64,000 nt of DNA, taken from contig JAQSDM010000005.1 in the NCBI GenBank assembly GCA_029945945.1, forward strand, positions 955,353-1,019,352, read 5' to 3'. Every line of letters starts with the position of its first letter. The first letter of the stretch is position 1. This stretch comes from Algoriphagus sp. GTDB lineage: Bacteria > Bacteroidota > Bacteroidia > Cytophagales > Cyclobacteriaceae. The notes beneath the pieces were generated by a model. That model was not told the origin of the DNA. It was given only the letters and a program-made list of their open reading frames with translations, and searched no databases. This document shows, one piece after another, positions 9,360 through 23,585 of the stretch. A program made the position numbers and the translations under genes.

Positions 9360-9604
9360 GGTGTGCCGGAGGTTTCTTCTCTCAAAATTTAGGGCAATTC
9401 ATTTGATTTTCGATTCCTTCGGAAAAAAATATAATTCTGAATAATGAGCAGGATGCAAACGATTGGTTATAATGGATTGATTCTTTGAACTTAAAAAGAA
9501 ACAGGATTTCGATTTTTTAAAATTCACTGCTTTTTATCACCAATTTTTGGTTTTCGGAAAACTTCAAATTCATGGAATTAACCAACCCCATTTGTTTTAA
9601 ATCG

Positions 9605-11436: not shown

Positions 11437-13563
11437 TCAGGATAGGATTTGATAGGTAATGAAAGCCGCCAAATAAGCCAGGACAGTCATGTAGGTTGTC
11501 TGGATTAACGGCCATTTCCATCCTTTAGTTTCCCGATAGACCACCGCCACCGTGCTCATGCATTGCATCGCAAAGGCATAGAATACCATGAGTGAAAACG
11601 CTGTTGCCGTATTGAAGACCTTTTCTCCGGTAGTTGGATTGATTTGCTGATCAAGTTTTTGGCGGATGGTCAAGTCATCTTCCGGATCTCCACCTATGCT
11701 GTAGATCGTGGCGATTGTGGAAACGAAAACTTCCCTTGCTGCGAATGATGCGATCAATGCAATTCCGATTTTCCAGTCATATCCAAGCGGCCGGATGACA
11801 GGTTCAATTCCTCGTCCCATGATTCCGATAAATGAATTTTCAAGCAATAGGGAGGAAGTTTCAGCTTCAATTACTTCATGCTCAGATTCAGGCGCGAGAG
11901 CAAGTTTTTCTTGTCCTGAAGTCCGGATTGCATCCATTTTGGAAGGTGGTCCGTAAGATGCCAACACCCATAAGATGACGGAGATCGCAAGGATTACCTT
12001 TCCTGCTTCCGTCACGAAAGTTTTTGATTTGTTATACATCGTGAGGCCAACATCTTTCCATCGTGGTCTGCGATAAGAAGGAAGCTCAACCATCAAATAG
12101 CTTTTTTCTTCCGTTTTCAGGATGATCTTGAGAAGAAATGCGGTTCCTAAGACGCCAACAACTCCGAGAACATACAATCCAAAAAGTGCAAAAGACCGGA
12201 GATTAATAATCCCGATGGATTCATCTGGTACGACTAAACCAATCAAAATCACATAAACCGGTAACCGTGCCGAGCAACTCATCAATGGGGTTACCAGAAT
12301 CGTAATCATTTTCTCTTTCCAGTTTCCAATGTTTCTGGCAGCCATTACCCCGGGTATCGCACATGCGACTCCCGAAACTAACGGAACAATACTTTTTCCA
12401 TGCAATCCGAATGGCCTCATCCAGCGATCCATCAGGAAAACCACTCTTGACATATAACCGGTATCTTCCAGAATTGCCAAAAATCCAAAGAGCATGGCTA
12501 TTTGTGGGATAAAAATTACAACTCCTCCAATCCCCGGAATGATGCCTTCAGTAATCAAGCTACTCAAAGGTCCCGCTGGTAAAAGCTCACTTACTTTTCC
12601 GGCAAACTGGGCAAATGTGCCGTCAATAAAGTCCATCGGAACGGATGACCAGGCAAAAATCGCCTGAAAAATCAAAAGCAGGATAGCTGCAAAAATAGCA
12701 TATCCAAAAACCGGGTGCAGCAGAATTTTATCAATTGAGGACGCCTGATTTTTTACCTCTTTTCTTACAACCGTTTTTTCGACAATCGCTGTTATTTTTT
12801 TGTATCGCAGCTTTGTTTCTTCCAGCTGAGCAGCATCCAAATCAAAATGCTGATCCTTTAATTGTTGATTAATCCAGGATTTTTCTTCAGCAGAAATGGT
12901 TTTGTCTTTAGTGCCAAAACGAAGCAACTGATAAGCCTGGTAAAAATTCTGAAGATTGAAATGCTCTTTCACATTTTGCAAAAGAGACTTGTCTACAATT
13001 TCCTCGATTGCTATAAATCCGGAGGTATTTCCAAAATTTTTCTGATGAATAAGGTCTCGTATTTTGTCCAGGCCTTTTTCCCCGCGGGCATCCGTGCTGA
13101 GTATCGGCACGCCCAATGCTTTGAAGATTTCAAAACCTTTGATCTCGATATTTTTTTTGGTGGCAAGATCTGCCATGTTTAAAACAAGGGCAAGATTCAG
13201 CCCCAAATCGATCAACTGGGTCGCCAAAAAAAGTCCTCTCGAAAGTTGAAGAGAATCAATGACCATGAGGACATAGTCAGGCTTCTCTTTTTTATTCAGC
13301 TGATTGAGGACTCGGTGCGCGATGATTTCATCTTCCGAATTTGGATAGAGGCTATAAGTCCCTGGCAAATCGACGATTTCATAGGTATTCCCTTTGAAAC
13401 TCATTATCCCGGTTTTTTTGTCCACCGTCACTCCCGGATAATTCCCGATTTTCTGATTCAGACCGGTGAGCTGGTTGAAAATCGTCGACTTTCCTACATT
13501 GGGATTTCCAATGATGGCTATTCTGGGCATTTTTACTAAAGGGTGAGTAGGGGACTCGGTCAT
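11437..13563 (-). CDS. feoB: ferrous iron transporter FeoB
   Basis: 708 residues. The N-terminal G domain carries G1 GNPNVGKS (residues 19-26), G3 DLPG (65-68) and G4 NMAD, and drives or gates Fe(II) import. A helical linker follows, then a polytopic membrane domain with the two Gate regions (GIGGVVIFIPQIAMLF and a C-terminal AAREVFVSTIATIYSIGG). The start at 13563 lies 5 bp after feoA; an internal Met at residue 12 is an alternative. The FeoA-FeoB-small Cys-rich protein order is a standard ferrous iron operon. Confidence 0.96.
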   Translation of the reverse strand: MTESPTHPLVKMPRIAIIGNPNVGKSTIFNQLTGLNQKIGNYPGVTVDKKTGIMSFKGNTYEIVDLPGTYSLYPNSEDEIIAHRVLNQLNKKEKPDYVLMVIDSLQLSRGLFLATQLIDLGLNLALVLNMADLATKKNIEIKGFEIFKALGVPILSTDARGEKGLDKIRDLIHQKNFGNTSGFIAIEEIVDKSLLQNVKEHFNLQNFYQAYQLLRFGTKDKTISAEEKSWINQQLKDQHFDLDAAQLEETKLRYKKITAIVEKTVVRKEVKNQASSIDKILLHPVFGYAIFAAILLLIFQAIFAWSSVPMDFIDGTFAQFAGKVSELLPAGPLSSLITEGIIPGIGGVVIFIPQIAMLFGFLAILEDTGYMSRVVFLMDRWMRPFGLHGKSIVPLVSGVACAIPGVMAARNIGNWKEKMITILVTPLMSCSARLPVYVILIGLVVPDESIGIINLRSFALFGLYVLGVVGVLGTAFLLKIILKTEEKSYLMVELPSYRRPRWKDVGLTMYNKSKTFVTEAGKVILAISVILWVLASYGPPSKMDAIRTSGQEKLALAPESEHEVIEAETSSLLLENSFIGIMGRGIEPVIRPLGYDWKIGIALIASFAAREVFVSTIATIYSIGGDPEDDLTIRQKLDQQINPTTGEKVFNTATAFSLMVFYAFAMQCMSTVAVVYRETKGWKWPLIQTTYMTVLAYLAAFITYQILS

Positions 13564-13568
13564 GAAAT

Positions 13569-13790
13569 TCAGAGTAATTGAACCTGGATCAAAGCGGCTT
13601 CGCTTTTTCGGAGAGCGAGTAATGTGTCTTCCATTCGGAAAGCCATTGGTCCTCCTCCCGGAGCCGTGTGATCGAGCGTAATTTTTTTGCCGGGCAGAAA
13701 GCCAAGTTCCATTAAATTAATTTTCAGAGGTGAATCGGAAATTTCCCTGATGATAGCAGATCGGGAAAGCGGCATCTTTTCAGCAGTCAT
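13569..13790 (-). CDS. feoA: FeoA, SH3-like partner of FeoB
   Basis: Starts at the ATG at 13790, giving 73 residues, the normal FeoA size; the longer frame upstream adds a non-homologous tail. The core MELGFLPGKKITLDHTAPGG and the ending LALRKSEAALIQV match the SH3-like FeoA domain that regulates FeoB in the cytoplasm. It is the first gene of the feo operon, with a TACTTTTG -7 box at 13814-13821 on the same strand. Confidence 0.93.
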   Translation of the reverse strand: MTAEKMPLSRSAIIREISDSPLKINLMELGFLPGKKITLDHTAPGGGPMAFRMEDTLLALRKSEAALIQVQLL

Positions 13791-13813
13791 GAATATGGGG
13801 TGAAATCCATACA

Positions 13814-13844
13814 CAAAAGTAATATTATTTGGAATGAATCTAAA
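13814..13844 (-). promoter_or_regulatory. feoAB promoter with an imperfect palindromic operator
   Basis: The minus strand carries TACTTTTG (13821-13814), a perfect -7 box 24 bp before feoA. Just upstream is TTTAGA-N5-TCCAAA (13844-13828), a near palindrome whose halves differ at one base. It lies in the -33/-7 spacer, where a metal-dependent repressor of the DtxR/IdeR or Fur class would act. Operator identity is inference. Confidence 0.4.
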
Positions 13845-13929
13845 GAAAAATAAACAAGATTTTTATCAGGTTTTTCTCTGATTTATAAGAGTCAAAAAGT
13901 CTTTTTTATCAGTTTGATGAAAGCCAACC

Positions 13930-16338
13930 TCAAAAACTTCCTCTGATCGAAAAGGTGAAATTCCTACCGGGTGCAGCAATTCCCGAGCTGTAAGGTTGAT
14001 ATCGAATATCACCGATGTTCTCTACTCCAGCCATTAAGTGGATGTGCGGGTCGAGCTGATAGCTTGTGTTAAAGTTAAAAATCATCCAGGAAGGTGAATA
14101 TGGCCTGCCCAATTCATCTTTTGCATAGAGATGTGGCTTCCCTTTTTCTTCCAGAGGCATTCTTCCGTAAGAAACTTCCCTGCTGTATTGTGTCGTGAAT
14201 TCAATCCTGAGTTTTTTATTTAAATAACTCAAACGAGTCAGGCCAAATGCAGGGGCTGCATGACGGGATGGACTTGTACTTTCATCGTCCAGTTCCTCCG
14301 TTCCTTTTTGCCAATTGTATCGCGAGGTGATAAGGATTCGCTTGGTCACAGCAAATTCAATTCCTGCCTGAAAACCGTAGATCTTTGCGGATGCGGCATT
14401 TTGAATTGCAAAAACCTGGCTTGGCTGGCCTTCATAATCAATCTCCGTTTCTCCATTTAATGTAAATGGGCGTCTAACCAACGCATTATCCAGTAAGGTG
14501 TAAAAACCGCTGAAATCCAGTTTGAGGAATTGATTGAAATGCTTATTGAGATTCAATTCAGCATTGTAGGCATATTCCGGCTTCAAATCCGGATTTGGTA
14601 CCAGCACCATTCCCGGCTCGGAGTCGAAGATTTTTCCAAGATCGTCCACATTCGGTGCGCGGAAACCAGTCGATAAAACAGGTGAAATGGTCAGGGTGGG
14701 CTCTGGATTGAAAATCAATCCAAGGCTTCCAGTGACTGATCCAAATGAATTGGAAGCTTCTGAAAATGGAAGAGGATAGAATGCTGTATTATTTCCGAAA
14801 TCAGCCTGAAGATCAGTGAAATTGTATCGCAAACCTGTCTGGAGTTTTAACTTTTCAGAGAAATGTGCGTGATAAGTGCTGTAAACCGCCAGCGAGTTCC
14901 AGTCTGAATCAGGATATCTGGCCGAAGCAGGAGTGGAGATGCCGGTCGCTATATTTTCAACAATTCCGGTGGATCCGACCTCGTTGTATACCCATTCGCC
15001 ACCGTAGGTCAGGAAGCTTTCATTTCGGATCAATTTTACAAAATCTGCATTCAGAGACAGGGCATTGACTTTTTCAGTTCTTTTAAATAGATCCTCCTTT
15101 CCAAATCTTCGATCATTTCGACTTTCCTCAAAATATTGATGAGCGATTTTCACGTTCATTTGATCGAAAATCCCTGATTCTCCCCGATGAGTCATCCCAA
15201 GGGTATTCATCACCCATACCTGGGGTCCGTAATACCATTCTGCATATTTAAGTGCTGATCCGTTTCCTTCAATCAATCGATCGTACCTCGGAATATCTCC
15301 TGTCCGACTGTAGTGAAAGCCATAGTCAAATTCTGTTTTTTCACTTGGTTTGAAACTTACTTTCTGCATCAGGTTCATTTGTGAATAACCACTTTTGACC
15401 TGAACTCTTGGATCTGAATTTGAAATCGTGGTATCCATTTCTCCATCTCTTTCGGCATAAAATGGTCTTAGATATTCGTTGGGACCGGATTTTCCCATTT
15501 TCAAATCCCCATAGTCAAAATTTGAAAAGCTTGTCAGGAATGCCCACTTTTTAAAGCCCCAGGACACATCTGCATGGAGGGTTAATTCATTATTGGCAGT
15601 AGCAAACCTTGAAAATATATTGCCTGAAAGGAGGGAAGTGTCTTTTGAGAATTCTGGTTTTAAAGTTTCAAATGCCATCACGCCTCCAATGGCATCGCTT
15701 CCATACATGACCGATCCAGGACCAAAAAGTACTTCGGTGCTTTGAATCGAAAATGGGTCAACCGAAATCACATTCTGAAGATTGCCGGAGCGAAATATGG
15801 CTGTGTTCATTCTGACCCCATCCACGGCATAAAGAAGCCGATTTGCAGAGAAACCCCGAATCATAGGACTTCCGCCACCTTGTTGGCTTTTCTGAATAAA
15901 GACTTCTCCGCTGCTTCCCAGCCAATCTGCAGAATTTGCAGGGTTTCGGATTTGAAGATTCGAAGCTGAAAGAACAGAAACTTTTCCGGGAACATCCTGA
16001 CTACTTTGGCGCCATTTGGTTGCTGAAACTATAGCCTGATCCATCTGAATCATTCCTGGAAACATTTTCAAGAGGAAATCGGATTTTTTGATTTCTTCCC
16101 AACTCATAGTCAGACTTTGAAAGCCTAGAAGTTGAAAATGGATTGTATTCTGACTTTCAAATTTGGATATATTGGCATTTCCATTCTTGTCAGAAACTTC
16201 ACTTCCATTGGTTTCTGTTCCAAAAATAAGAACTCCTGGCAAAGGCGTTTTGGAATCGCTGTCAAGTATCCTGACGGTCTGTCCAAAGGATTGAACTCCG
16301 AAAGTCAACAGGCATGAAAAAATGTAAAAAAACCTCAT
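13930..16338 (-). CDS. TonB-dependent outer membrane receptor
   Basis: 802 residues from the ATG at 16338, which opens a signal peptide (RFFYIFSCLLTFGVQSFGQ). Next comes a carboxypeptidase-regulatory-like beta-sandwich (LPGVLIFGTETNGSEVSDKN), then the plug domain with VPGKVSVLSASNLQIR, GGGSPMIRGFSANRLLYAVD and a RMNTAIFR segment, then the 22-strand barrel ending in the aromatic-terminated strand NFTFSIRGSF. Its heme/siderophore-type plug and its place beside feoAB suggest an iron complex as substrate; that is inference. It is transcribed alone from a promoter at about 16381. Confidence 0.9.
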   Translation of the reverse strand: MRFFYIFSCLLTFGVQSFGQTVRILDSDSKTPLPGVLIFGTETNGSEVSDKNGNANISKFESQNTIHFQLLGFQSLTMSWEEIKKSDFLLKMFPGMIQMDQAIVSATKWRQSSQDVPGKVSVLSASNLQIRNPANSADWLGSSGEVFIQKSQQGGGSPMIRGFSANRLLYAVDGVRMNTAIFRSGNLQNVISVDPFSIQSTEVLFGPGSVMYGSDAIGGVMAFETLKPEFSKDTSLLSGNIFSRFATANNELTLHADVSWGFKKWAFLTSFSNFDYGDLKMGKSGPNEYLRPFYAERDGEMDTTISNSDPRVQVKSGYSQMNLMQKVSFKPSEKTEFDYGFHYSRTGDIPRYDRLIEGNGSALKYAEWYYGPQVWVMNTLGMTHRGESGIFDQMNVKIAHQYFEESRNDRRFGKEDLFKRTEKVNALSLNADFVKLIRNESFLTYGGEWVYNEVGSTGIVENIATGISTPASARYPDSDWNSLAVYSTYHAHFSEKLKLQTGLRYNFTDLQADFGNNTAFYPLPFSEASNSFGSVTGSLGLIFNPEPTLTISPVLSTGFRAPNVDDLGKIFDSEPGMVLVPNPDLKPEYAYNAELNLNKHFNQFLKLDFSGFYTLLDNALVRRPFTLNGETEIDYEGQPSQVFAIQNAASAKIYGFQAGIEFAVTKRILITSRYNWQKGTEELDDESTSPSRHAAPAFGLTRLSYLNKKLRIEFTTQYSREVSYGRMPLEEKGKPHLYAKDELGRPYSPSWMIFNFNTSYQLDPHIHLMAGVENIGDIRYQPYSSGIAAPGRNFTFSIRGSF

Positions 16339-16380
16339 GAGTAAATAGAATCGGGTTGGACTGTTTCCAAGTTGTTCTAC

Positions 16381-16397
16381 CAAAGTTAAACGTTTAA
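16381..16397 (-). promoter_or_regulatory. promoter of the TonB receptor with overlapping palindrome
   Basis: TAACTTTG (minus strand, 16388-16381) is a perfect -7 box about 45 bp before the start codon. It overlaps the 12-bp palindrome TTAAACGTTTAA (16386-16397), which could be a repressor site. Confidence 0.4.
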
Positions 16398-16490: not shown

Positions 16491-17753
16491 TTAAGCTTTG
16501 CCTCTCAGCATCAGATTCCAATACATGAAGGGAAGACCGTATTTTTTCAGAAGCCACATACTGTATTGTTCTTTGGTCGTATCGACAAACTTTGAAATAA
16601 GCGGATCGCTATCGCGAACGTTGTCGTATTTGAATTCCGCCAAGACCATTCTGCCATAACCTGTTACCAGCGGACAAGAGGAATATCCAGAATAAACATC
16701 CTTTCCGAGTTGGTTTGTTTTAATCAGGTTAAGAATATTTCCTACCACGACGGGCGCTTGTTTTCTCACAGCGGCTCCGGTTTTACCGGTTGGCAGGGCT
16801 GCAACATCTCCCAGCGCAAAAATATTTGCAAATCTCTTATGTTGAAGTGTATTGATGTCTACATCCACCCAACCTTTAGAAGGTCCGTCTTGCATAGAAA
16901 CTATGGATTCACGGATGAATTTAGGAGCTGCCTGAGGCGGAGCCAGGTGAAGCATGTCGAAATGCATTTTAACTTCGAGGTCCGCGACTAATTCTTCTCC
17001 TATTCTACCTGCATCAGTCACGGGACAAGTGGTAGCTTCGGGCTTATTATATTTGAAAAAAATCTCTTGATTCTTCGCATCAATCCGGATAGGGGAATAA
17101 TGGCCTTTAAAAATTATATCCCGGTCAATCAGAATTTTATTGAGTGTTTTTGCAAATTCAGGAACACTGAAAATCGATGGGCCAGGTGTTGCAAAAATCA
17201 CATTGGTCTTATTCCGAACTCCGGATTTGTGAAAATACTCTTCCGCCAGATACATGATTTTTTGGGGTGCTCCACCGCATTTGATTGGGGTGGCAGCTTG
17301 AGTAAATACCGCGTTTCCACCTTTGAAATTTTGTAAAACTTCCCAAGTATGCTCCGAATTGGTGTAGTTACTGCAAACAACTCCTTTGTCCATGGCCTCT
17401 TTCAACCCTGGCATTAGTTCGGGAGCCATCACCAAGCCTGGTGCAAGAACCAAGTATTCATAAGTAAAATCACCGGAATTTTCGGTGCTGACTGAATTAG
17501 TTTCTGGATTGACCCCTGTTGCTTTATCCTTGATCCAATCTACTCCCTTGGGAATATAATCGGCTTCATTTCTTATCGTGTCTTTGTAGTCAAAAGTTCC
17601 AGCACCTACCAAAGTCCAGGCAGGTTGATAGTAGTGCTTTTCCGAAGGCTCAATAATCGCCATTTTTAGGCTGGCGTTCTTATTTTTGAATTGGGCAGCT
17701 ACGGTAATTCCTGCAGTACCGCCTCCGATTATTAATATTTGGTAATTTTTCAT
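16491..17753 (-). CDS. sqr: sulfide:quinone oxidoreductase, type II (SQOR-like)
   Basis: A 420-residue FAD flavoprotein that oxidises sulfide at the membrane, passes electrons to quinone and leaves a persulfide. An N-terminal dinucleotide fold IIGGGTAGITVAA (residues 8-20) and EPSEKHYYQPAWTLVGAG follow the family. The two redox cysteines of type II enzymes are present in IKCGGAPQKIMYL (Cys159) and GYSSCPLVTGYGR (Cys360), as in mitochondrial SQOR, and the C-terminus PFMYWNLMLRG is likewise conserved. It is divergent from the Crp/Fnr gene and shares its intergenic region; its own Crp-type site is at 17805-17818. The strong match supports sulfide detoxification or energy use. Confidence 0.93.
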   Translation of the reverse strand: MKNYQILIIGGGTAGITVAAQFKNKNASLKMAIIEPSEKHYYQPAWTLVGAGTFDYKDTIRNEADYIPKGVDWIKDKATGVNPETNSVSTENSGDFTYEYLVLAPGLVMAPELMPGLKEAMDKGVVCSNYTNSEHTWEVLQNFKGGNAVFTQAATPIKCGGAPQKIMYLAEEYFHKSGVRNKTNVIFATPGPSIFSVPEFAKTLNKILIDRDIIFKGHYSPIRIDAKNQEIFFKYNKPEATTCPVTDAGRIGEELVADLEVKMHFDMLHLAPPQAAPKFIRESIVSMQDGPSKGWVDVDINTLQHKRFANIFALGDVAALPTGKTGAAVRKQAPVVVGNILNLIKTNQLGKDVYSGYSSCPLVTGYGRMVLAEFKYDNVRDSDPLISKFVDTTKEQYSMWLLKKYGLPFMYWNLMLRGKA

Positions 17754-17774: not shown

Positions 17775-17818
17775 GAAAGATAAAAATTGGCAAATTGTAA
17801 TCGGGTGACTTTTATCAC
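17775..17818 (-). promoter_or_regulatory. sqr promoter: Crp-type site plus -7-like box
   Basis: A perfect palindrome GTGA-CTTTTA-TCAC (17805-17818) lies 52 bp before the sqr start. On the minus strand TATCTTTC (17782-17775, one mismatch to TAnnTTTG) begins 29.5 bp from the site centre, the same spacing as at the other four promoters of this block. Confidence 0.7.
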
Positions 17819-17873
17819 CTTAAGATGGAATATCAATTTTGAATCCTGCGAAAAACCGATTCGTTTAGAGGGT

Positions 17874-17917
17874 GTGATTTTTATCACTATTTTCACTCTA
17901 TCAGAACTCTAAATTCG
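17874..17917 (+). promoter_or_regulatory. promoter of the Crp/Fnr gene: Crp-type site plus -7-like box
   Basis: GTGA-TTTTTA-TCAC (17874-17887), with TAAATTCG (17910-17917, one mismatch) 29.5 bp downstream of its centre and the ATG at 17935. This implies autoregulation. Confidence 0.7.
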
Positions 17918-17934
17918 AAACTTTTTACAAAAAC

Positions 17935-18591
17935 ATGAATACTGAAGAACTCAAAGCAGCATTACCAAATTTCACAGACCCTAAGCTTCTTCAAGCGATT
18001 CTTGACAAAGGACAAATCATGAATTTGGAGCCTGGGAAGGTCATGATGGAGCCTGGGCAATTCATTAAGATGGTTCCTATCGTACTGGAAGGTTCTATTA
18101 AAATCATGAGAGTGGACGAGGAAGGGAAAGAACTTTTTCTTTATTACCTGGATGCGGGAGAGACCTGTGCGCTGTCACTTACTTGCTGCACTGCCGCTAA
18201 GCCTAGTGAAATCAAAGCTGTCGTTGAAGAAAAAACCACTATCATAGCGATCCCTGTGTCAGTTCATGAGCAGTTTTCGGACGAGTTCAGACAGTGGAAG
18301 GACTTTGTTGCCAATACGTATCAAAACAGGTTTCAGGAAATGCTGGTCGCACTAGATGCAGTGGCATTTAAACGTATGGACGAGCGCCTGATGCGCTACA
18401 TTGTGACTAAAATGAAGCAGTATAAAACAAACGAGCTCCATACAACCCATCAGGAAATCGCCAATGAATTAGGTACTTCGAGGGAAGTTATTTCCAGACT
18501 TTTGAAAGTGCTTGAAAAGAAAAAGTGGATCGAACTTGGGAGAAACGTAATCTATATCCGCGATGATTTCGAAGAATTGATTAGCAAATAA
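17935..18591 (+). CDS. Crp/Fnr-family transcription regulator of the sulfur block
   Basis: 218 residues: a cNMP-type beta-roll effector domain (about 20-115), a dimer helix (about 120-145; FVANTYQNRFQEML) and a C-terminal winged helix-turn-helix with THQEIANELGTSREVISRLLKVLEKK. Three cysteines sit together in the effector domain (GETCALSLTCC: Cys78, Cys84, Cys85), which could sense thiol oxidation, persulfide or a metal; no Fnr-type N-terminal Fe-S cysteine cluster is seen. It sits between sqr and a stress-protein gene, and Crp-type palindromes precede all five transcription units around it, including its own. Regulator family is certain; the signal is inferred. Its stop codon abuts that of the convergent gene with no gap. 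Confidence 0.92.
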   Translation: MNTEELKAALPNFTDPKLLQAILDKGQIMNLEPGKVMMEPGQFIKMVPIVLEGSIKIMRVDEEGKELFLYYLDAGETCALSLTCCTAAKPSEIKAVVEEKTTIIAIPVSVHEQFSDEFRQWKDFVANTYQNRFQEMLVALDAVAFKRMDERLMRYIVTKMKQYKTNELHTTHQEIANELGTSREVISRLLKVLEKKKWIELGRNVIYIRDDFEELISK

Positions 18592-19395
18592 TCAATTCAT
18601 TATCAACAGTGGTACATGTGTATGGTAGGCCATTTTGATTGATTGGCTTTTGCTTAAGATTTGATCCCATAGGTTTTTGTGTTGGTGACACATGACCAGA
18701 ATTCCATTTTCATGCTCTTCCAGAAATTGGTCCAATCCTTCGGTTGCGCTTGGAGCATAATATGTGTGGATTTTTACAGGAAGTTTTGGGTATTTTTTGA
18801 CGATGTAGGATTCCAGGCCCAGGACAGAAAGGTTTTCCTTGAATCCGGATCCGGACTGTACGTGTAAAAACTCCAGACCAAGTCCCCATTTCTCACTCAT
18901 CATGACTGTCCAGTCGATGAATTCTTCCTCATGATTGGCAAATTCCAAAGCCAGAGTCACTTTTTTTAGCTTCGCTACATTTGCTTCTGCAGGTACAACG
19001 AGAACAGGAATTTTCGCTTCTTTGATTGTATTGACGGTGGTGCTTCCAACAAGGGTTTTTCTGATTCCGCTCGCCCCTTGGGTACCCATGACAATAAGAG
19101 TTGCTTTCAACTCCTCCGCTATTCTTGCAATTGTGATGGAGGCGGTGCCTTCTTTGATCACATAATCAAATTTTATTCCGGTAGCTTGATTGTCCTCGAT
19201 TGTCTTTTTCATCATTGTCTCAGCATCTCGGTGCATTGTATCTAATACGATTGCGGCCTGAGAAGCAAAGTCATATATTAACTCAATGACGTGTACCAAG
19301 GTGATAGAGGCATGCTTTTTATCAGCGAGAAAAATCGCAAATTCTAAGGCTTTTTTAGAGTTTTCGGAAAAATCTAATGGGAGTATGATTTTCAT
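18592..19395 (-). CDS. universal stress protein, tandem Usp domains
   Basis: 267 residues. The first domain (1-143) is canonical, with LPLDFSENSKKALEFA at the start and the nucleotide-loop pattern LIVMGTQGASGIRKTLVGSTT near its end. The second (about 146-267) is shorter and has lost that loop, so probably only one site binds nucleotide. It ends exactly where the convergent regulator gene ends. The site GTGA-TATTTA-TCAT lies 50 bp upstream of its start, tying it to the sulfur regulon. Confidence 0.9.
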   Translation of the reverse strand: MKIILPLDFSENSKKALEFAIFLADKKHASITLVHVIELIYDFASQAAIVLDTMHRDAETMMKKTIEDNQATGIKFDYVIKEGTASITIARIAEELKATLIVMGTQGASGIRKTLVGSTTVNTIKEAKIPVLVVPAEANVAKLKKVTLALEFANHEEEFIDWTVMMSEKWGLGLEFLHVQSGSGFKENLSVLGLESYIVKKYPKLPVKIHTYYAPSATEGLDQFLEEHENGILVMCHQHKNLWDQILSKSQSIKMAYHTHVPLLIMN

Positions 19396-19414
19396 AACAA
19401 TTGGATTTATGACT

Positions 19415-19458
19415 CTAATTTATGGCTTTGAACTGTTTAAATTCATGATAAATATCAC
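19415..19458 (-). promoter_or_regulatory. promoter of the universal stress gene: Crp-type site plus -7-like box
   Basis: Read on the minus strand: GTGA-TATTTA-TCAT (19458-19445) and TAAATTAG (19422-19415, one mismatch to TAnnTTTG), with the same 29.5-bp offset as its neighbours. Confidence 0.6.
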
Positions 19459-19529
19459 CGACTTAAATTTTTGTTTTGGGAAAACTTAGAAGTCAAGAGA
19501 TCTTGAATTACGCGATTAGAATGTGCCAT

Positions 19530-19573
19530 GTAACATTTGTCACCACTTTGGCTTTTGGATGAATCTACTTTTG
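19530..19573 (+). promoter_or_regulatory. promoter of the TauE-hydroxylase operon: Crp-type site plus perfect -7 box
   Basis: GTAA-CATTTG-TCAC (19530-19543) is a weaker site, and TACTTTTG (19566-19573) is a perfect -7 box 29.5 bp from its centre. The ATG follows at 19601. Confidence 0.6.
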
Positions 19574-19600
19574 TGCAGTCAAATCAGAAAAAAATAATTT

Positions 19601-20407
19601 ATGGATATTATAGTTATAATCGGTTTTGCAGCAGCTATCATTATTGGTATCAGCCTCGGATTGATTGGTGGGGGAGGTTCAATTCTTACAGTTCCAGTAC
19701 TGGTGTATATTCTGAACGTGGATCCTGTTTTGGCCACTGCCTATTCCTTGTTTGTTGTGGGAAGCACTTCGTTGGTTGGGTCCTTCACTTATATGCAGAA
19801 GAAACTCGTTCATTACAAGACAGCATTGGTATTTGCAATACCTTCCTTTATCGCGGTTTTCCTTACCAGGAAATTTCTAGTGCCCGCCCTACCTGATCCG
19901 CTTTTCACTGTAACAGGACTTGAAATCAGTAAGAATGTCGGAATCATGGTGTTCTTCGCCCTTATCATGCTTGCAGCTTCGATTTCCATGATCACAGGTA
20001 AAAAATGTAAGGATTGTGACGAAAACGAACCTGTCCGATTCAACTTCCCTATGATTGCTTTGGAAGGTTCTGTAGTGGGTGTCATTACCGGAATTGTGGG
20101 TGCAGGTGGTGGATTTCTTATTATTCCGGCACTGGTGATTTTGGCAAGACTACCGATGAAAATGGCCGTTGGAACTTCCCTTTTGATCATTGCTGCAAAA
20201 TCCCTGATCGGGTTTCTGGGCGATGTCTCTACTCAGACGATCGATTGGAAGATGCTCTTGATTTTCACCGGACTATCGATCATTGGTATTTTCATAGGAA
20301 GTGCGCTTTCGAAAAAAATCAATGAAAAAATCCTTAAAACAGGATTTGGATGGTTTGTGCTTGCGATGGGTATCTACATCATCACTAAAGAATTGACGTC
20401 AATTTAA
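19601..20407 (+). CDS. TauE/SafE-family sulfur-compound permease
   Basis: 268 residues, about 8 membrane helices in two homologous halves. The first half starts GISLGLIGGGGSILTVP and the second GVITGIVGAGGGFLIIP; these glycine-rich repeats define the TauE/SafE (DUF81) family, which exports sulfite, sulfoacetate or related anions or imports thiosulfate-like compounds. The loop between the halves carries KKCKDCDENE, a CxxC pair. It is first in a three-gene unit with a hydroxylase-like protein 11 bp downstream. The sulfur context supports sulfite or thiosulfate as substrate, but that is not shown by sequence. Confidence 0.9.
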   Translation: MDIIVIIGFAAAIIIGISLGLIGGGGSILTVPVLVYILNVDPVLATAYSLFVVGSTSLVGSFTYMQKKLVHYKTALVFAIPSFIAVFLTRKFLVPALPDPLFTVTGLEISKNVGIMVFFALIMLAASISMITGKKCKDCDENEPVRFNFPMIALEGSVVGVITGIVGAGGGFLIIPALVILARLPMKMAVGTSLLIIAAKSLIGFLGDVSTQTIDWKMLLIFTGLSIIGIFIGSALSKKINEKILKTGFGWFVLAMGIYIITKELTSI

Positions 20408-20418
20408 GACTGCTTTCT

Positions 20419-21294
20419 GTGGAAAAATATTTCAAAATATTCCTGGATGGATACTATGGTTATTGGAACTATCTAACCTCCGAAATCATCTATCCATCCT
20501 GGCATAACTACTTCTGGTGGCTTTTGGGCTTGTCTTTGGTAGTTTGGATGCTGGAAGTGGTTTTCCCCTGGAGAAAAAACCAGCCTTTGATCCGAAAGGA
20601 TTTTTGGCTGGATGCTTTTTACATGTTTTTTAACTTTTTTCTCTTTTCCCTGATCGTTTACAATTCCGTTTCCAATGTCGCGGTGGAAGCTTTCAACGAG
20701 TTTCTCGGAGTTTTTGGAGTTCAAAATCTGGTAGCAATTCAGGTCAATTCCTGGCCTGTTTGGGCGCAGTTTCTTTTGATGTTGGTGGTGGCAGATTTCA
20801 TCCAATGGAATGTCCATCGATTGCTACACTATGTGCCTTGGCTTTGGGAGTTTCACAAAGTCCATCATTCTGTTGAGCAAATGGGTTTTGCGGCTCACCT
20901 GAGATACCATTGGATGGAGACAATCGTCTACAAATCAATTCAGTATATTCCTCTGGCAATGATTGGTTTTGGACTGGATGATTTCTTTGTCCTCCACATT
21001 TTCACGATCGCAATAGGCCATTTGAATCATGCGAATGTCAATATCACCTATGGTCCTCTGAAGTATCTCCTGAATAACCCGATCATGCATATCTGGCACC
21101 ATGCTAAAAATCTGCCTGCGGGAAGTCACGGTGTCAATTATGGAATTACCCTGAGCATTTGGGATTATATGTTTGGCACTGCTTATATCCCAAATTCCGG
21201 CAAAGACGAACCGCTGGGATTTGATCATATCGAAGAATTTCCAAAGACCTTCTGGTCACAAATTACCTATCCATGGACAAGAAAGAACCCGTAA
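20419..21294 (+). CDS. fatty acid hydroxylase / sterol desaturase family membrane protein
   Basis: 291 residues from a GTG start 11 bp after the tauE-like gene. Membrane helices alternate with the histidine clusters of the di-iron hydroxylase superfamily: HRLLHY (HxxxH), HKVHHS (HxxHH), HLNH and IWHHAK. The superfamily inserts oxygen into lipid chains or sterols at the membrane, using two irons held by the histidines. All clusters are intact, so it is probably an active enzyme. Its substrate is unknown. Its position in an operon controlled by the sulfide-block regulator is unusual for the family. Confidence 0.85.
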   Translation: MEKYFKIFLDGYYGYWNYLTSEIIYPSWHNYFWWLLGLSLVVWMLEVVFPWRKNQPLIRKDFWLDAFYMFFNFFLFSLIVYNSVSNVAVEAFNEFLGVFGVQNLVAIQVNSWPVWAQFLLMLVVADFIQWNVHRLLHYVPWLWEFHKVHHSVEQMGFAAHLRYHWMETIVYKSIQYIPLAMIGFGLDDFFVLHIFTIAIGHLNHANVNITYGPLKYLLNNPIMHIWHHAKNLPAGSHGVNYGITLSIWDYMFGTAYIPNSGKDEPLGFDHIEEFPKTFWSQITYPWTRKNP

Positions 21295-21533
21295 AATTCA
21301 ACAATCCATTAAATCAATGGACACCAATTATACTCATGTGTCTGACACTGGGATTGGCGCCATTTTTCCCCGAGCCTCATGTTTGGGGTAAAGTTAAATG
21401 GGTCGCAGGCGGAGCAGTTGGGATGCAATTGATGGATTGGTTAGACTTTCTTTTCCACGGATTTCCATGGATTTTGCTAATGAGATTGATCATTATTAAT
21501 GCGAAAGCAAAATTCAAAACCCAGGCTGTTTAA
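21273..21533 (+). CDS. small membrane protein, 86 aa, unknown function
   Basis: Starts 22 bp inside the end of the hydroxylase-like gene in another frame, so it is probably translationally coupled. Two hydrophobic helices (IILMCLTLGLAPFF and a tryptophan-rich C-terminal LMDWLDFLFHGFPWILLMRL) surround a WGKVKWVAGGAVGMQ link. I do not recognise a family. It ends 8 bp before the next Crp-type site. Its preserved frame and operon position favour a real gene, perhaps a partner of the hydroxylase-like enzyme. Confidence 0.6.
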   Translation: MDKKEPVKFNNPLNQWTPIILMCLTLGLAPFFPEPHVWGKVKWVAGGAVGMQLMDWLDFLFHGFPWILLMRLIIINAKAKFKTQAV

Positions 21534-21540
21534 CACTGCT

Positions 21541-21584
21541 GTGACTTTTATTACTGTTTGGAGGGTTTGATGCCCGTAATTTTG
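21541..21584 (+). promoter_or_regulatory. rhodanese promoter: Crp-type site plus perfect -7 box
   Basis: GTGA-CTTTTA-TTAC (21541-21554), one mismatch to the palindrome, with TAATTTTG (21577-21584), a perfect -7 box, 29.5 bp from its centre. The ATG is at 21610. Confidence 0.7.
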
Positions 21585-21609: not shown

Positions 21610-21945
21610 ATGTTTGACTTCTTCAAAACAACACCAAAAAATTACGAGGATATTCCATCAGGCACTTTCCATGAGCTGATGCTTAAGCCAAACACCGTCA
21701 TCTTGGATGTTCGGACTGCAGGAGAATTTGCAGGCGGAAAAATCAGAGGAGCACGAAATATTGATATCATGTCAAGAGATTTCGTGAACCAGGTGAAAAA
21801 TCTCCCTAAAGACAAAACCTATCTGATTTACTGCAGAAGCGGAAACAGAAGCGGACAGGCATGTGAGATCATGGCTGATTTAGGATTCGAAAACCTAAAG
21901 AATATGGCTGGTGGTATCATGAGATGGCCTTTTGAAACAGTCTGA
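21610..21945 (+). CDS. single-domain rhodanese (sulfurtransferase)
   Basis: 111 residues, one rhodanese domain. It has the ILDVRTAGEFAGGKIRGARN front half and the active-site loop YCRSGNRSG with catalytic Cys75. It moves sulfane sulfur from thiosulfate or persulfide donors to thiol or cyanide acceptors in the cytoplasm; no signal peptide is present. Located with SQR and TauE, it probably takes persulfide sulfur produced by sulfide oxidation. It is a single gene with its own regulated promoter and a terminator at 21974. Confidence 0.92.
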   Translation: MFDFFKTTPKNYEDIPSGTFHELMLKPNTVILDVRTAGEFAGGKIRGARNIDIMSRDFVNQVKNLPKDKTYLIYCRSGNRSGQACEIMADLGFENLKNMAGGIMRWPFETV

Positions 21946-22064: not shown

Positions 22065-23585
22065 ATGAAAACATCAAAATTACTATCCACGCTGCTGGGA
22101 GTGTCGCTCCTGACGACAGCAATGATCTCATGTAAAGACAAAGAAGGAATGGCTCCGGTCATTCAATTGCCGGAAATGGCGCCTGAAATTAGTTTCACTG
22201 CCCTTACCGAAGATGGAGAAATCCAGACTTACGACGCAAGAGAGCTCAACAGCAGTAATACCTCAATGGTAATCAAAGGTTTGGCTTCAGGAGAAAGCAT
22301 CATTTCTATTGATTACCGACCTGCTACAGGTCAGTTATACGGACTGAGTTCGATGAGCAGATTGTACATCATTAATGAAAATTCAGGAATGGCGACTCAA
22401 TTGGGAGCAGGCCCTTTCAGTCCGGCTATTTCAGGGGAAAATGCATCCATTGACTTCAATCCAACAGTAGACAGAATTCGATTAGTAACTGAGTCTGGTC
22501 AAAACCTGAGACTGCATCCCGAATTGGGAACAGTGGTAGCGACTGACGGAAATATTAACGGAGGAATGAATCCAAGAATTGGCGCGGTGGCTTACACCAA
22601 TAGTTTTTCAGGTGCGACAAGCACGATATTGTTCGATATAGATTTTGAGCAAGACAAACTGTATCAGCAAGTGCCTCCGAATGAAGGAGGGTTACAGGAA
22701 GTAGGTGATTTAAGAGTTGATTTCGAAGGATTGGGGGATATGGATATTACAGAAGACAACAAGTTTGCTCTTGCTGTGAATCGTAATATTGAAGAATCAA
22801 GACTTTATGCAATTAACTTAATGTCTGGCAAAGCAATCTGGATTGGTACATTCAACGATCCTGTTGTAAGCCTTGCAGTGAAAACAAGTCCTATTGCTTT
22901 TGCATCTGATTCTACAAATAAATTATATCGTTTTAACCCGAATGATCCGGAGCCAACTTCCGTGAGTTTAACAGGATTGATGTCAGGTGAAATGATCGTT
23001 GGATTAGATTTCAGACCTGCAAATGGTCAGTTAGTTGCAGTTTCCAGCATGAGCAAATTATACAGTGTCAACACAGCAAGCGGAGCTTTGGCACCGATTG
23101 GTACAGGATTCAGTCCGATGATTATGGGAGATTTTATCGGGTTTGATTTTAATCCGACAGTGGATCGAATCAGACTGGTGACTAATCAGGGTCAAAATCT
23201 GAGACTTCATCCGGATCTTGGAACGGCAGTCTTTGTTGACGGAACTTTAAAGCCAGGAACGCCAATGGTGAATTCGGCTGCGTATTTGAATAATTTCGCT
23301 GGTGCAACGACAACGACACTTTTTGTGCTGGATTCCGGAAATGGAATGCTATACACTCAAACGCCGCCAAATGAAGGATTGCTTGTACCAGTCGGTTCGT
23401 TGGGAGTGAGTTTTATGGAAGACAACGGATTCGATATCGGAGGTACTTCCAATAAGGCTTTCGCAGTATTAACCACAACTTCCGGATCCGGTGTTTACAG
23501 TATCAATTTGATGACCGGGGCAGCTACGAAAGTTTCTGACCTCAATTTCAAGCCTACTGCAATGGCATTGGGCTTAGGTTTCTAA
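22065..23585 (+). CDS. DUF4394 lipoprotein with two internal repeats
   Basis: 506 residues. The N-terminus KTSKLLSTLLGVSLLTTAMISC is a lipoprotein signal with the acylated Cys at about residue 23. Two copies of the DUF4394 domain follow (about 42-265 and 275-506), each containing the same blocks: NPTVDRIRLVT, GQNLRLHPELGT or GQNLRLHPDLGT, and the TPPNEG / VPPNEG motif before a VG(D/S)L strand. The fold is expected to be a beta-propeller-like surface domain; the function of the family is unknown. Single gene, terminator at 23593. Confidence 0.88.
   Translation: MKTSKLLSTLLGVSLLTTAMISCKDKEGMAPVIQLPEMAPEISFTALTEDGEIQTYDARELNSSNTSMVIKGLASGESIISIDYRPATGQLYGLSSMSRLYIINENSGMATQLGAGPFSPAISGENASIDFNPTVDRIRLVTESGQNLRLHPELGTVVATDGNINGGMNPRIGAVAYTNSFSGATSTILFDIDFEQDKLYQQVPPNEGGLQEVGDLRVDFEGLGDMDITEDNKFALAVNRNIEESRLYAINLMSGKAIWIGTFNDPVVSLAVKTSPIAFASDSTNKLYRFNPNDPEPTSVSLTGLMSGEMIVGLDFRPANGQLVAVSSMSKLYSVNTASGALAPIGTGFSPMIMGDFIGFDFNPTVDRIRLVTNQGQNLRLHPDLGTAVFVDGTLKPGTPMVNSAAYLNNFAGATTTTLFVLDSGNGMLYTQTPPNEGLLVPVGSLGVSFMEDNGFDIGGTSNKAFAVLTTTSGSGVYSINLMTGAATKVSDLNFKPTAMALGLGF

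What the first reader, a model, noticed from the sequence alone, without database searches (positions are those of the whole stretch)
17775..21584. Five-promoter Crp/Fnr regulon with identical operator geometry around a sulfide-oxidation locus
Seen directly: GTGA-N6-TCAC-like palindromes lie ahead of sqr (17805-17818), the crp-like gene (17874-17887), the universal stress gene (19445-19458), the TauE operon (19530-19543) and the rhodanese gene (21541-21554). In all five the site centre is exactly 29.5 bp from the first T of a TAnnTTTG-like -7 box (two perfect, three with one mismatch), and the start codon is 50-57 bp from the site. Known: Crp activators centred near -41.5 work as class II activators. 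Inference: one regulator activates the whole locus, giving a Bacteroidota sulfide-response regulon with the activator site placed where a -33 box would be.
Basis: partly seen in the sequence, partly recalled or inferred. Interest (0 to 1): 0.8.

Follow-up and report, generated by a model that had tools for sequence, protein, structure and literature searches.

The report
Crp-like switch for sulfide-oxidation genes
Bacteroidota carry a Crp-like protein that is predicted to switch on sulfide-detoxifying genes, likely sensing reactive sulfur through conserved cysteines; its proposed DNA sites sit at a nearly fixed distance from the promoter box and differ according to one amino acid of the protein's DNA-reading helix.

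Summary
All five palindromes lie exactly 22 nt before a TAnnTTTG-like box (centre 29.5 bp from its first T). They are the only such hits in 64 kb at that stringency (simulated mean 0.37, maximum 2). In same-genus genomes site and spacing (22 or 23 nt) are kept before tauE, rhodanese, the regulator gene and mostly sqr, but not before the universal stress gene. Elsewhere in the genome the geometry precedes persulfide-dioxygenase, thioredoxin, TsdA-like and rhodanese genes. Across Bacteroidota it recurs near homologues of the regulator and before the same sulfur genes. The strongest link between protein and sites is covariation: loci whose regulator has Glu at the CRP-E181 position have GTGA-N6-TCAC (48 loci; 1 has GTAA-N6-TTAC); Val-type loci have GTAA-N6-TTAC (47; 1 has GTGA). 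The cAMP contacts are lost and cysteines (C78, C84, usually C85) sit in that stretch. Best reading: a class II (-41.5) Crp/Fnr-family activator of sulfide/persulfide oxidation, likely a thiol sensor. Binding, activation and sulfide response are untested; Glu/Val switched only a few times, and many loci show no perfect site.

The parts
16491..17753 (-). sqr, sulfide:quinone oxidoreductase, close to mitochondrial SQOR
   Evidence: mitochondrial SQOR chains best, E 6e-103; Pfam Pyr_redox_2
17805..17818 (-). operator for sqr, GTGA-N6-TCAC, perfect
   Evidence: site at 22 nt with total mismatch <=2 in 6 of 8 same-genus rows, window included
17775..17782 (-). -7 box of sqr, TATCTTTC
   Evidence: 22 nt from operator
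17874..17887 (+). operator for the regulator gene (likely autoregulation), perfect
   Evidence: site at 22 or 23 nt in 11 of 12 same-genus rows, window included
17910..17917 (+). -7 box of the regulator gene, TAAATTCG
17935..18591 (+). Crp/Fnr-family regulator, 218 aa; C78, C84, C85; recognition helix R183 E184 R188
   Evidence: Pfam cNMP_binding and HTH_Crp_2; alignments
18592..19395 (-). universal stress protein gene; regulon membership doubtful
   Evidence: Pfam Usp; site not conserved
19445..19458 (-). operator-like site before usp, one mismatch
   Evidence: not conserved in same-genus genomes
19415..19422 (-). -7 box of usp, TAAATTAG
19530..19543 (+). operator for the tauE operon, hybrid GTAA-N6-TCAC
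   Evidence: site at 22 or 23 nt in 12 of 12 same-genus rows, window included
19566..19573 (+). -7 box of tauE, TACTTTTG, perfect
19601..20407 (+). TauE/SafE-type exporter gene
   Evidence: Pfam TauE, E 6e-46
20419..21294 (+). fatty-acid-hydroxylase-family gene, likely in the tauE operon
   Evidence: Pfam FA_hydroxylase
21273..21533 (+). small ORF of 86 aa, overlaps the gene before it
   Evidence: no family
21541..21554 (+). operator for rhodanese gene, GTGA-N6-TTAC
   Evidence: site at 22 or 23 nt in 6 of 6 same-genus rows, window included
21577..21584 (+). -7 box of rhodanese gene, TAATTTTG, perfect
21610..21945 (+). rhodanese gene, 111 aa
   Evidence: Pfam Rhodanese

Best explanation
Four, perhaps five, promoters of this locus share one operator geometry, and the Crp/Fnr-family protein encoded among them likely binds these operators as a dimer and is predicted to switch on sulfide/persulfide-oxidation genes as a class II activator centred at -41.5, likely in response to reactive sulfur reaching its conserved cysteines. 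Shown by sequence: the sites, their spacing and its conservation, the sulfur genes behind them, covariation of operator with residue 184, the cysteines and the loss of cAMP-contact residues. Inferred: binding, since R183/E184/R188 match CRP R180/E181/R185; activation through contact with RNA polymerase where the -33 element would lie; autoregulation. Least certain: persulfidation or disulfide formation at C78, C84 and C85 as the switch. Predicted outcome: SQR makes persulfide, thioredoxin and rhodanese carry it, persulfide dioxygenase oxidises it, TauE and YeeE/YedE-type proteins move sulfur compounds.
For: Spacing: perfect sites peak at 22 nt: 25 against about 1 per other spacing in 60 same-family loci, 30 in 80 named loci. 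Covariation in 174 non-redundant regulators with C78 and C84: Glu184 loci 64 GTGA/TCAC and 1 GTAA/TTAC sites at 22 nt; Val184 loci 1 and 75; loci 48:1 and 1:47. With all 256 half-sites open, GTGA (22, background 0.06) and GTAA (50, background 0.22) stand out; the next best have 1 and 2. Four genomes hold both types with own-type sites nearby. In 392 Bacteroidota genomes GTAA matches are 100 (control 17) in the 160 with a regulator match and 8 (control 16) in the other 232; GTGA 42 (7) and 5 (5) (hand-tallied). Behind 176 sites at 22 nt: tauE 27, pdo 27, regulator 22, yee1 11, sqr 9, rhodanese 6, unassigned 56. Core sulfur genes near 76 of 148 regulator loci against 1 of 40 control windows. C78 in 211 of 211 rows, C84 197, C85 187. 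AR3-like acids D61 (146 of 175) and E66 (168 of 175) kept. TAnnTTTG spans -12 to -5 in a flavobacterium (PMC9723704, passages), which puts the site centre at -41.5.
Against: No transcript, binding or sulfide data. E/V covariation rests on few events: four minimal changes on the tree, one supported independent pair, two on the best tree. 64 of 112 Glu-type and 15 of 62 Val-type loci have no perfect own-type site at 22 nt nearby. Among 33 Glu-type loci with >=70% identity to the window's regulator only 9 have a core sulfur gene within reach. In the phylum set only 50 of 71 rows have all three Cys; 7 of 12 kept regulators without C85 still have GTGA sites, so C85 is not needed for the pattern. 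Conservation counts lean upward: the 80 named rows were found with DNA patterns that include TCA...TCC. Of CRP's AR2 residues none is in the window's protein. The Cys loop is the least confident part of the model (residues 81-83 pLDDT <50). L304 holds a Val-type paralogue without C84/C85 and a GTGA site, and in L305 GTAA sites also lie near the Glu-type paralogue. The usp site is not conserved.
Confidence: 0.78

Rival explanations
1. The same protein is the regulator but its signal is not reactive sulfur: the cysteines sense oxygen, nitric oxide or general thiol stress, or hold a metal or cluster, and the sulfur genes are one output among several.
For: Sites also precede SulP permease, efflux, HMA, ABC, MFS and cytochrome genes, 56 of 176 sites at 22 nt precede unassigned ORFs, and C85 is missing in a group that keeps the sites. 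Cysteines in Crp/Fnr proteins serve other signals (recalled).
Against: Named targets other than the regulator itself are mostly sulfide/persulfide genes. The cysteines sit in the effector stretch; no other Cys column is filled in more than 5 of 61 rows, so an FNR-like N-terminal cluster motif is absent.
Confidence: 0.25
2. The palindromes are sites of the genome's other Crp/Fnr protein, an FNR-like factor with N-terminal cysteines (L037 4228-4992).
For: It is the only other Crp/Fnr gene over the PF13545 cut-off in the genome. The usp site and its weak counterparts share a TGAT...TCAT core, which fits an FNR-type site (recalled).
Against: Residue 184 of the window's regulator family covaries with the operator, and sites cluster near its gene in many genera. 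The FNR-like protein has T, not R, at the CRP-R180 position (read by eye).
Confidence: 0.08
3. The protein is a repressor: bound at -41.5 over the -33 region it blocks RNA polymerase, and persulfide releases it, as with BigR, SqrR or CstR.
For: The site covers the place of the -33 element. Known sulfide sensors BigR and CstR are repressors (BigR: PMC7315123, passages; CstR recalled).
Against: A spacing with one sharp mode at 22 nt is what class II activation needs and repression does not. AR3-like acids are kept.
Confidence: 0.15
4. The pattern is chance or a by-product of AT-rich promoters.
For: The palindrome alone is not enriched in the window; at <=2 mismatches the genome-wide excess is small.
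Against: The peak at one spacing, control windows with 0 GTGA and 1 GTAA site at 22 nt in 800 kb, and the reversed-pattern controls.
Confidence: 0.01

Closest known systems
E. coli CRP (CAP) at class II promoters
   Same: Crp fold (best fold match a Crp protein), R-E-x-x-x-R recognition helix, GTGA half-sites, centre at -41.5, AR3-like acids
   Different: cAMP contacts absent in the window's protein: E72 is a gap, R82 aligns with K89, S83 with P90, T127/S128 with M136/L137; cysteines in that stretch; Bacteroidota -7 box; sulfur regulon; a natural Glu-to-Val form with GTAA sites
FisR of Cupriavidus and Acinetobacter
   Same: Activator of a sulfide oxidation/detoxification operon (Acinetobacter: PMC7315123, passages)
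   Different: FisR is a sigma-54 AAA+ activator; the protein here has Crp domains and no AAA+ domain
BigR/SqrR
   Same: Control of a yeeE-yedE-pdo operon, dithiol sensing (BigR: PMC7315123, passages)
   Different: ArsR-type repressors (recalled), no Crp domain
CstR of Staphylococcus aureus
   Same: Regulon with TauE, persulfide dioxygenase-rhodanese and SQR (recalled); the genome's PDO matches the MBL-rhodanese chains 3tp9 and 3r2u
   Different: CsoR-type repressor (recalled)
HcpR of Porphyromonas gingivalis
   Same: Crp/Fnr-family regulator of Bacteroidota, similar fold (9day, TM 0.70)
   Different: Serves nitrosative stress with heme (recalled); 15% identity in the fold match

Membership tests
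Crp/Fnr superfamily | cNMP-binding-type domain followed by Crp helix-turn-helix | tested here: met
   PF00027 32 bits (cut-off 27.5), PF13545 49.2 bits (27); fold match to Crp structures
cAMP-responsive CRP | cAMP-contact residues E72, R82, S83, T127, S128 | tested here: not met
   None kept in the window's protein. Over 175 rows: R at the R82 column in 28, S at the S83 column in 3, no T or S at the T127 and S128 columns; E72 falls in a gap
FNR | N-terminal cysteines for a 4Fe-4S cluster | tested here: not met
   The window's protein has only C78, C84 and C85 (read by eye); no other Cys column filled in more than 5 of 61 rows
Crp-type DNA recognition of GTGA half-sites | R180, E181, R185 in the recognition helix and GTGA-N6-TCAC sites | tested here: met
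   R183/E184/R188; covariation with the site; no binding assay
Class II Crp promoters | Site centred at -41.5, replacing the -35/-33 element | tested here: met
   Met on sequence only: 29.5 bp to the first T of the box, box at -12 to -5 (PMC9723704, passages); no 5' end mapped
Class II Crp promoters | Activation through AR1/AR2/AR3 contacts | tested here: inconclusive
   AR3-like acids kept; AR2 residues absent in the window's protein, K at the K101 column in 81 of 175 rows; AR1 not assessed
Persulfide-sensing regulators (FisR, BigR/SqrR, CstR) | AAA+, ArsR or CsoR domain of these proteins | tested here: not met
   No such Pfam domain at E<=0.001
Persulfide-sensing regulators (function) | Reversible thiol chemistry with persulfide changes DNA binding | not testable with these tools
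   Only conserved cysteines seen

The most novel reading that the evidence does not exclude
Much of Bacteroidota controls sulfide and persulfide oxidation with a Crp protein that has traded its cAMP pocket for a cysteine switch. One lineage has rewritten the regulon's operators from GTGA to GTAA together with a Glu-to-Val change at the CRP-181 position, so evolution has redone a classic laboratory specificity mutant while the sites kept their distance from the promoter.
Probability: 0.45. Interest if true: 0.85.

Novelty: new variant of a known kind. Interest (0 to 1): 0.68.

Why it matters
Regulators of sulfide oxidation are known from Proteobacteria (FisR and BigR in PMC7315123, passages) and Firmicutes (CstR, recalled). 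For Bacteroidota my searches of the open library listed none; subscription papers are not covered. If right, this gives a phylum-wide candidate sensor, a regulon with a readable operator, and a natural one-residue specificity switch in which protein and sites changed together while geometry stayed nearly fixed. It makes two questions directly testable: how a Crp fold can work without cAMP as a thiol switch, and how a regulon changes its operator without breaking, since hybrid sites (30 GTAA/TCAC and 14 GTGA/TTAC in Glu-type loci) look like a possible bridge.

Tried and rejected
Palindrome counts alone: no excess in the window, so site plus box was used. Two-mismatch genome scan: too noisy. Treating all five promoters as equal: rejected for usp. 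FNR-like paralogue as owner of the sites: held unlikely because of covariation. Base composition as cause of the GTGA/GTAA split: rejected, because backgrounds at other spacings are 1.65 (GTGA) and 0.65 (GTAA) in Glu-type, 0.10 and 2.55 in Val-type loci, against 64, 1, 1 and 75 at 22 nt. The Fisher p of 1.9e-25 is not corrected for relatedness and is not used as a probability. The pair test on the tree is without power. An L136-type paralogue (G130) with its own sites was left aside. The CRP residue table was off by one in numbering; one search replaces it.
Full report
What is there. The window is part of a 4.84 Mb genome; the best named matches to its regulator are Algoriphagus. The locus holds sqr (closest solved relatives mitochondrial SQOR), a Crp/Fnr-family regulator, a universal stress gene, tauE with a fatty-acid-hydroxylase-family gene and a small ORF, and a rhodanese gene. 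The five reported sites and boxes are as described, with 47 to 57 nt from site to start codon.

Is it more than chance? The palindrome alone is not: 23 found, 19.67 expected at one mismatch. Site (<=1 mismatch) plus box (<=1 mismatch) at 22 nt gives exactly the five reported promoters; spacings 12 to 21 and 23 to 34 give 0 to 2 each, and 60 simulated sequences gave mean 0.37, maximum 2.

Rest of the genome. With at most one mismatch over site and box there are 11 places. Four are in this locus. Four lie 47 to 67 nt before the start of a rhodanese lipoprotein gene, a thioredoxin gene, a metallo-beta-lactamase/rhodanese gene of the persulfide-dioxygenase type, and a TsdA/SoxA-type cytochrome gene (the lipoprotein was read by eye). 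Three stand before no credible gene. The usp site has two mismatches in all and is not among the 11. At two mismatches there are 59 hits against 38 for the reversed pattern. Two Crp/Fnr genes pass the PF13545 cut-off in the genome.

Relatives. In same-genus rows (window included; not every gene is present in each) a site at 22 or 23 nt with total mismatch <=2 is found for tauE in 12 of 12, rhodanese 6 of 6, regulator 11 of 12, sqr 6 of 8 and usp in 2 of 12: the window, and L168 at 23 nt and 132 nt from the start. In 60 loci around regulator homologues of the same family, perfect palindromes with a box (<=1 mismatch) peak at 22 nt: 25, with 4 and 5 at 21 and 23 and about 1 elsewhere. In 80 named loci, mostly Cytophagales, Flavobacteriia and Saprospiria by title: 30 at 22 nt; some are the same strains as. 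In 148 same-family genomes the exact 44-mer pattern has 90 matches against 9 for the reversed pattern; 87 (control 8) are in the 128 genomes with a regulator match at E<=1e-20 and 3 (control 1) in the 20 without (hand-tallied).

The operator follows the regulator. The recognition helix has R183 and R188 in all 141 rows, but residue 184 is Glu (109) or Val (32). This residue aligns with CRP E181, which contacts the operator (PMC3265434, passages). From memory, Ebright and co-workers found that Val or Leu at 181 changes preference at this base pair; I have not read that work here. The prediction, written down and alongside the test, was that Val-type regulators would use GTAA half-sites. bore it out on 140 loci. 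One search repeated it on 174 regulators with C78 and C84 (from 211 extracted; 14 without C84 and 23 at >97% identity to a kept one were dropped). Glu-type: 112 loci, 64 GTGA/TCAC sites and 1 GTAA/TTAC at 22 nt. Val-type: 62 loci, 1 and 75. 64 Glu-type and 15 Val-type loci have no perfect own-type site. With all three Cys required the split is 41 Glu-type loci with GTGA (one of them also GTAA) and 47 Val-type with GTAA (one also GTGA). The single GTGA site in a Val-type locus (L305) lies just behind a second, Glu-type paralogue. When all 256 half-sites were left open, with perfect boxes only, GTGA (22 sites, background 0.06) stood out in Glu-type and GTAA (50, background 0.22) in Val-type loci; the next best had 1 and 2.

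Genomes with both types. G492, G521, G233 and G422 each hold a Val-type and a Glu-type protein. GTAA sites lie in the Val-type locus (15 bp to 12 kb from the gene) and a GTGA site lies within about 50 bp of the Glu-type gene, in three cases at 22 nt and in G422 at 23 nt from the box. In G233 GTAA sites are also found about 0.4 kb past the Glu-type gene. A paralogue group with C-G-G or C-A-G in place of C-C-C is mixed: Glu-type L298 has GTGA, Glu-type L300 only hybrids, Val-type L302 has GTAA, Val-type L301 and L303 none, and Val-type L304 a GTGA site in the locus.

How many switches? A quick tree without column 184 needs four changes in all. Val forms one clade of 61 rows (support 87), a separate clade of three (L282-L284, support 98), and two places among paralogues without C84/C85. 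Two of the three in the small clade have a perfect GTAA site in the fetched locus. Only one supported independent pair exists (two on the best tree), in the expected direction, so the event count is small even though the site count is large.

Phylum sample. Of 392 Bacteroidota genomes, 160 match the regulator profile at E<=1e-30. GTAA pattern: 108 matches, 100 in those 160 (control 17), 8 in the other 232 (control 16). GTGA pattern: 47 matches, 42 (control 7) and 5 (control 5). Tallies by hand. The profile also catches paralogues, so 160 is an upper figure for true orthologues.

Targets. Of 212 sites (own-type, other and hybrid forms, spacings 21 to 23) with an ORF behind them, the 176 at 22 nt precede tauE 27, pdo 27, the regulator 22, yee1 11, sqr 9, rhodanese 6, thioredoxin 5, rhodanese lipoprotein 4, DUF2892 3, fah 3, omp 2, tsdA 1, and 56 unassigned ORFs. 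Of 38 unassigned ORFs with the own-type perfect site I scanned ten: three SulP permeases, a sulfite-oxidase-like molybdenum protein, two outer-membrane efflux proteins, an HMA protein, an ABC ATPase, an MFS protein and a cytochrome. A core sulfur gene (sqr, pdo, tauE, yee1/2, tsdA) is found in 44 of 102 Glu-type and 32 of 46 Val-type loci of at least 8 kb, against 1 of 40 arbitrary 20-kb windows from 20 relatives. The 40 loci were picked mostly because their genomes had pattern matches, which helps the first figures somewhat. Against the reading, only 9 of the 33 closest Glu-type loci (>=70% identity) have such a gene.

The sensor. Of 211 extracted regulators C78 is present in 211, C84 in 197, C85 in 187. 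By set, all three are in 59 of 60 family rows, 76 of 80 named rows (found with patterns that include TCA...TCC) and 50 of 71 phylum rows. C78 is shared with paralogues and so is not diagnostic; 7 of 12 kept regulators without C85 still have GTGA sites. The cysteines sit in the stretch that aligns with CRP's phosphate-binding cassette (name recalled); none of the cAMP contacts is kept in the window's protein. The predicted structure is confident (pLDDT 88.5) except for this loop (residues 81-83 below 50). Nearest solved folds are Crp proteins. That the cysteines react with persulfide is inference.

Mechanism. TAnnTTTG lies at -12 to -5 in Flavobacterium psychrophilum (PMC9723704, passages), so a centre 29.5 bp before its first T is -41.5, the class II position. 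CRP's AR3 acids D53 and E58 correspond to D61 (146 of 175) and E66 (168 of 175). AR2 residues are absent in the window's protein. The likely working is a dimer at -41.5 that takes over from the -33 element. Activation itself is not shown.

Known and new. Searches of the open library for a Crp/Fnr sulfide regulator or Bacteroidota sulfide regulation listed no such report (listings only). PMC7315123 (passages) describes FisR and BigR, and notes Crp of Acinetobacter as a persulfidated protein whose activity may be affected. The system works like a FisR or CstR regulon; it is not a member of those families.

Noticed in passing
L305 10173-10808, L307 3524, L309 6411, L284 4245: A second Glu-type Crp/Fnr paralogue without C84/C85 sits just ahead of a GTGA site in four genomes (spacing 22 or 23 nt to the box); its signal and targets are unknown.
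   Followed up: partly
L136 8697-9335 with sites at 9363 and 13266: In G130, a same-genus genome, a Crp/Fnr homologue with S in place of C85 has GTGA sites nearby at 21 and 22 nt from a perfect box.
   Followed up: no
L037 4228-5542: The genome's other Crp/Fnr gene, FNR-like with N-terminal cysteines, is followed by a rhodanese-like ORF (read by eye).
   Followed up: no
window 19445-19458: The usp site is weak in relatives, but a TGAT...TCAT-like core remains at 22 nt in several; it may belong to the FNR-like protein.
   Followed up: partly
L088 15165-16895, L129 9047-10747, L194 10716-12434: SulP sulfate-permease-family genes lie behind both site types, which suggests an anion carrier in persulfide metabolism.
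   Followed up: no
Glu-type loci: Hybrid sites are lopsided: 30 GTAA/TCAC against 14 GTGA/TTAC at 22 nt, so the promoter-proximal half keeps the GTGA type more often.
   Followed up: partly
window 20419-21533: A fatty-acid-hydroxylase-family gene (OlsE-like, below the NCBIfam cut-off) and a small ORF follow tauE and recur with it in several relatives; their link to sulfur is unclear.
   Followed up: no
window 22065-23585: A DUF4394 protein with two matched stretches follows the rhodanese gene.
   Followed up: no
window 11437-16383: A FeoB-like and a FeoA-like ORF (11437-13814) and a TonB-dependent-receptor-like ORF (13930-16383) lie beyond the end of sqr (read by eye).
   Followed up: no
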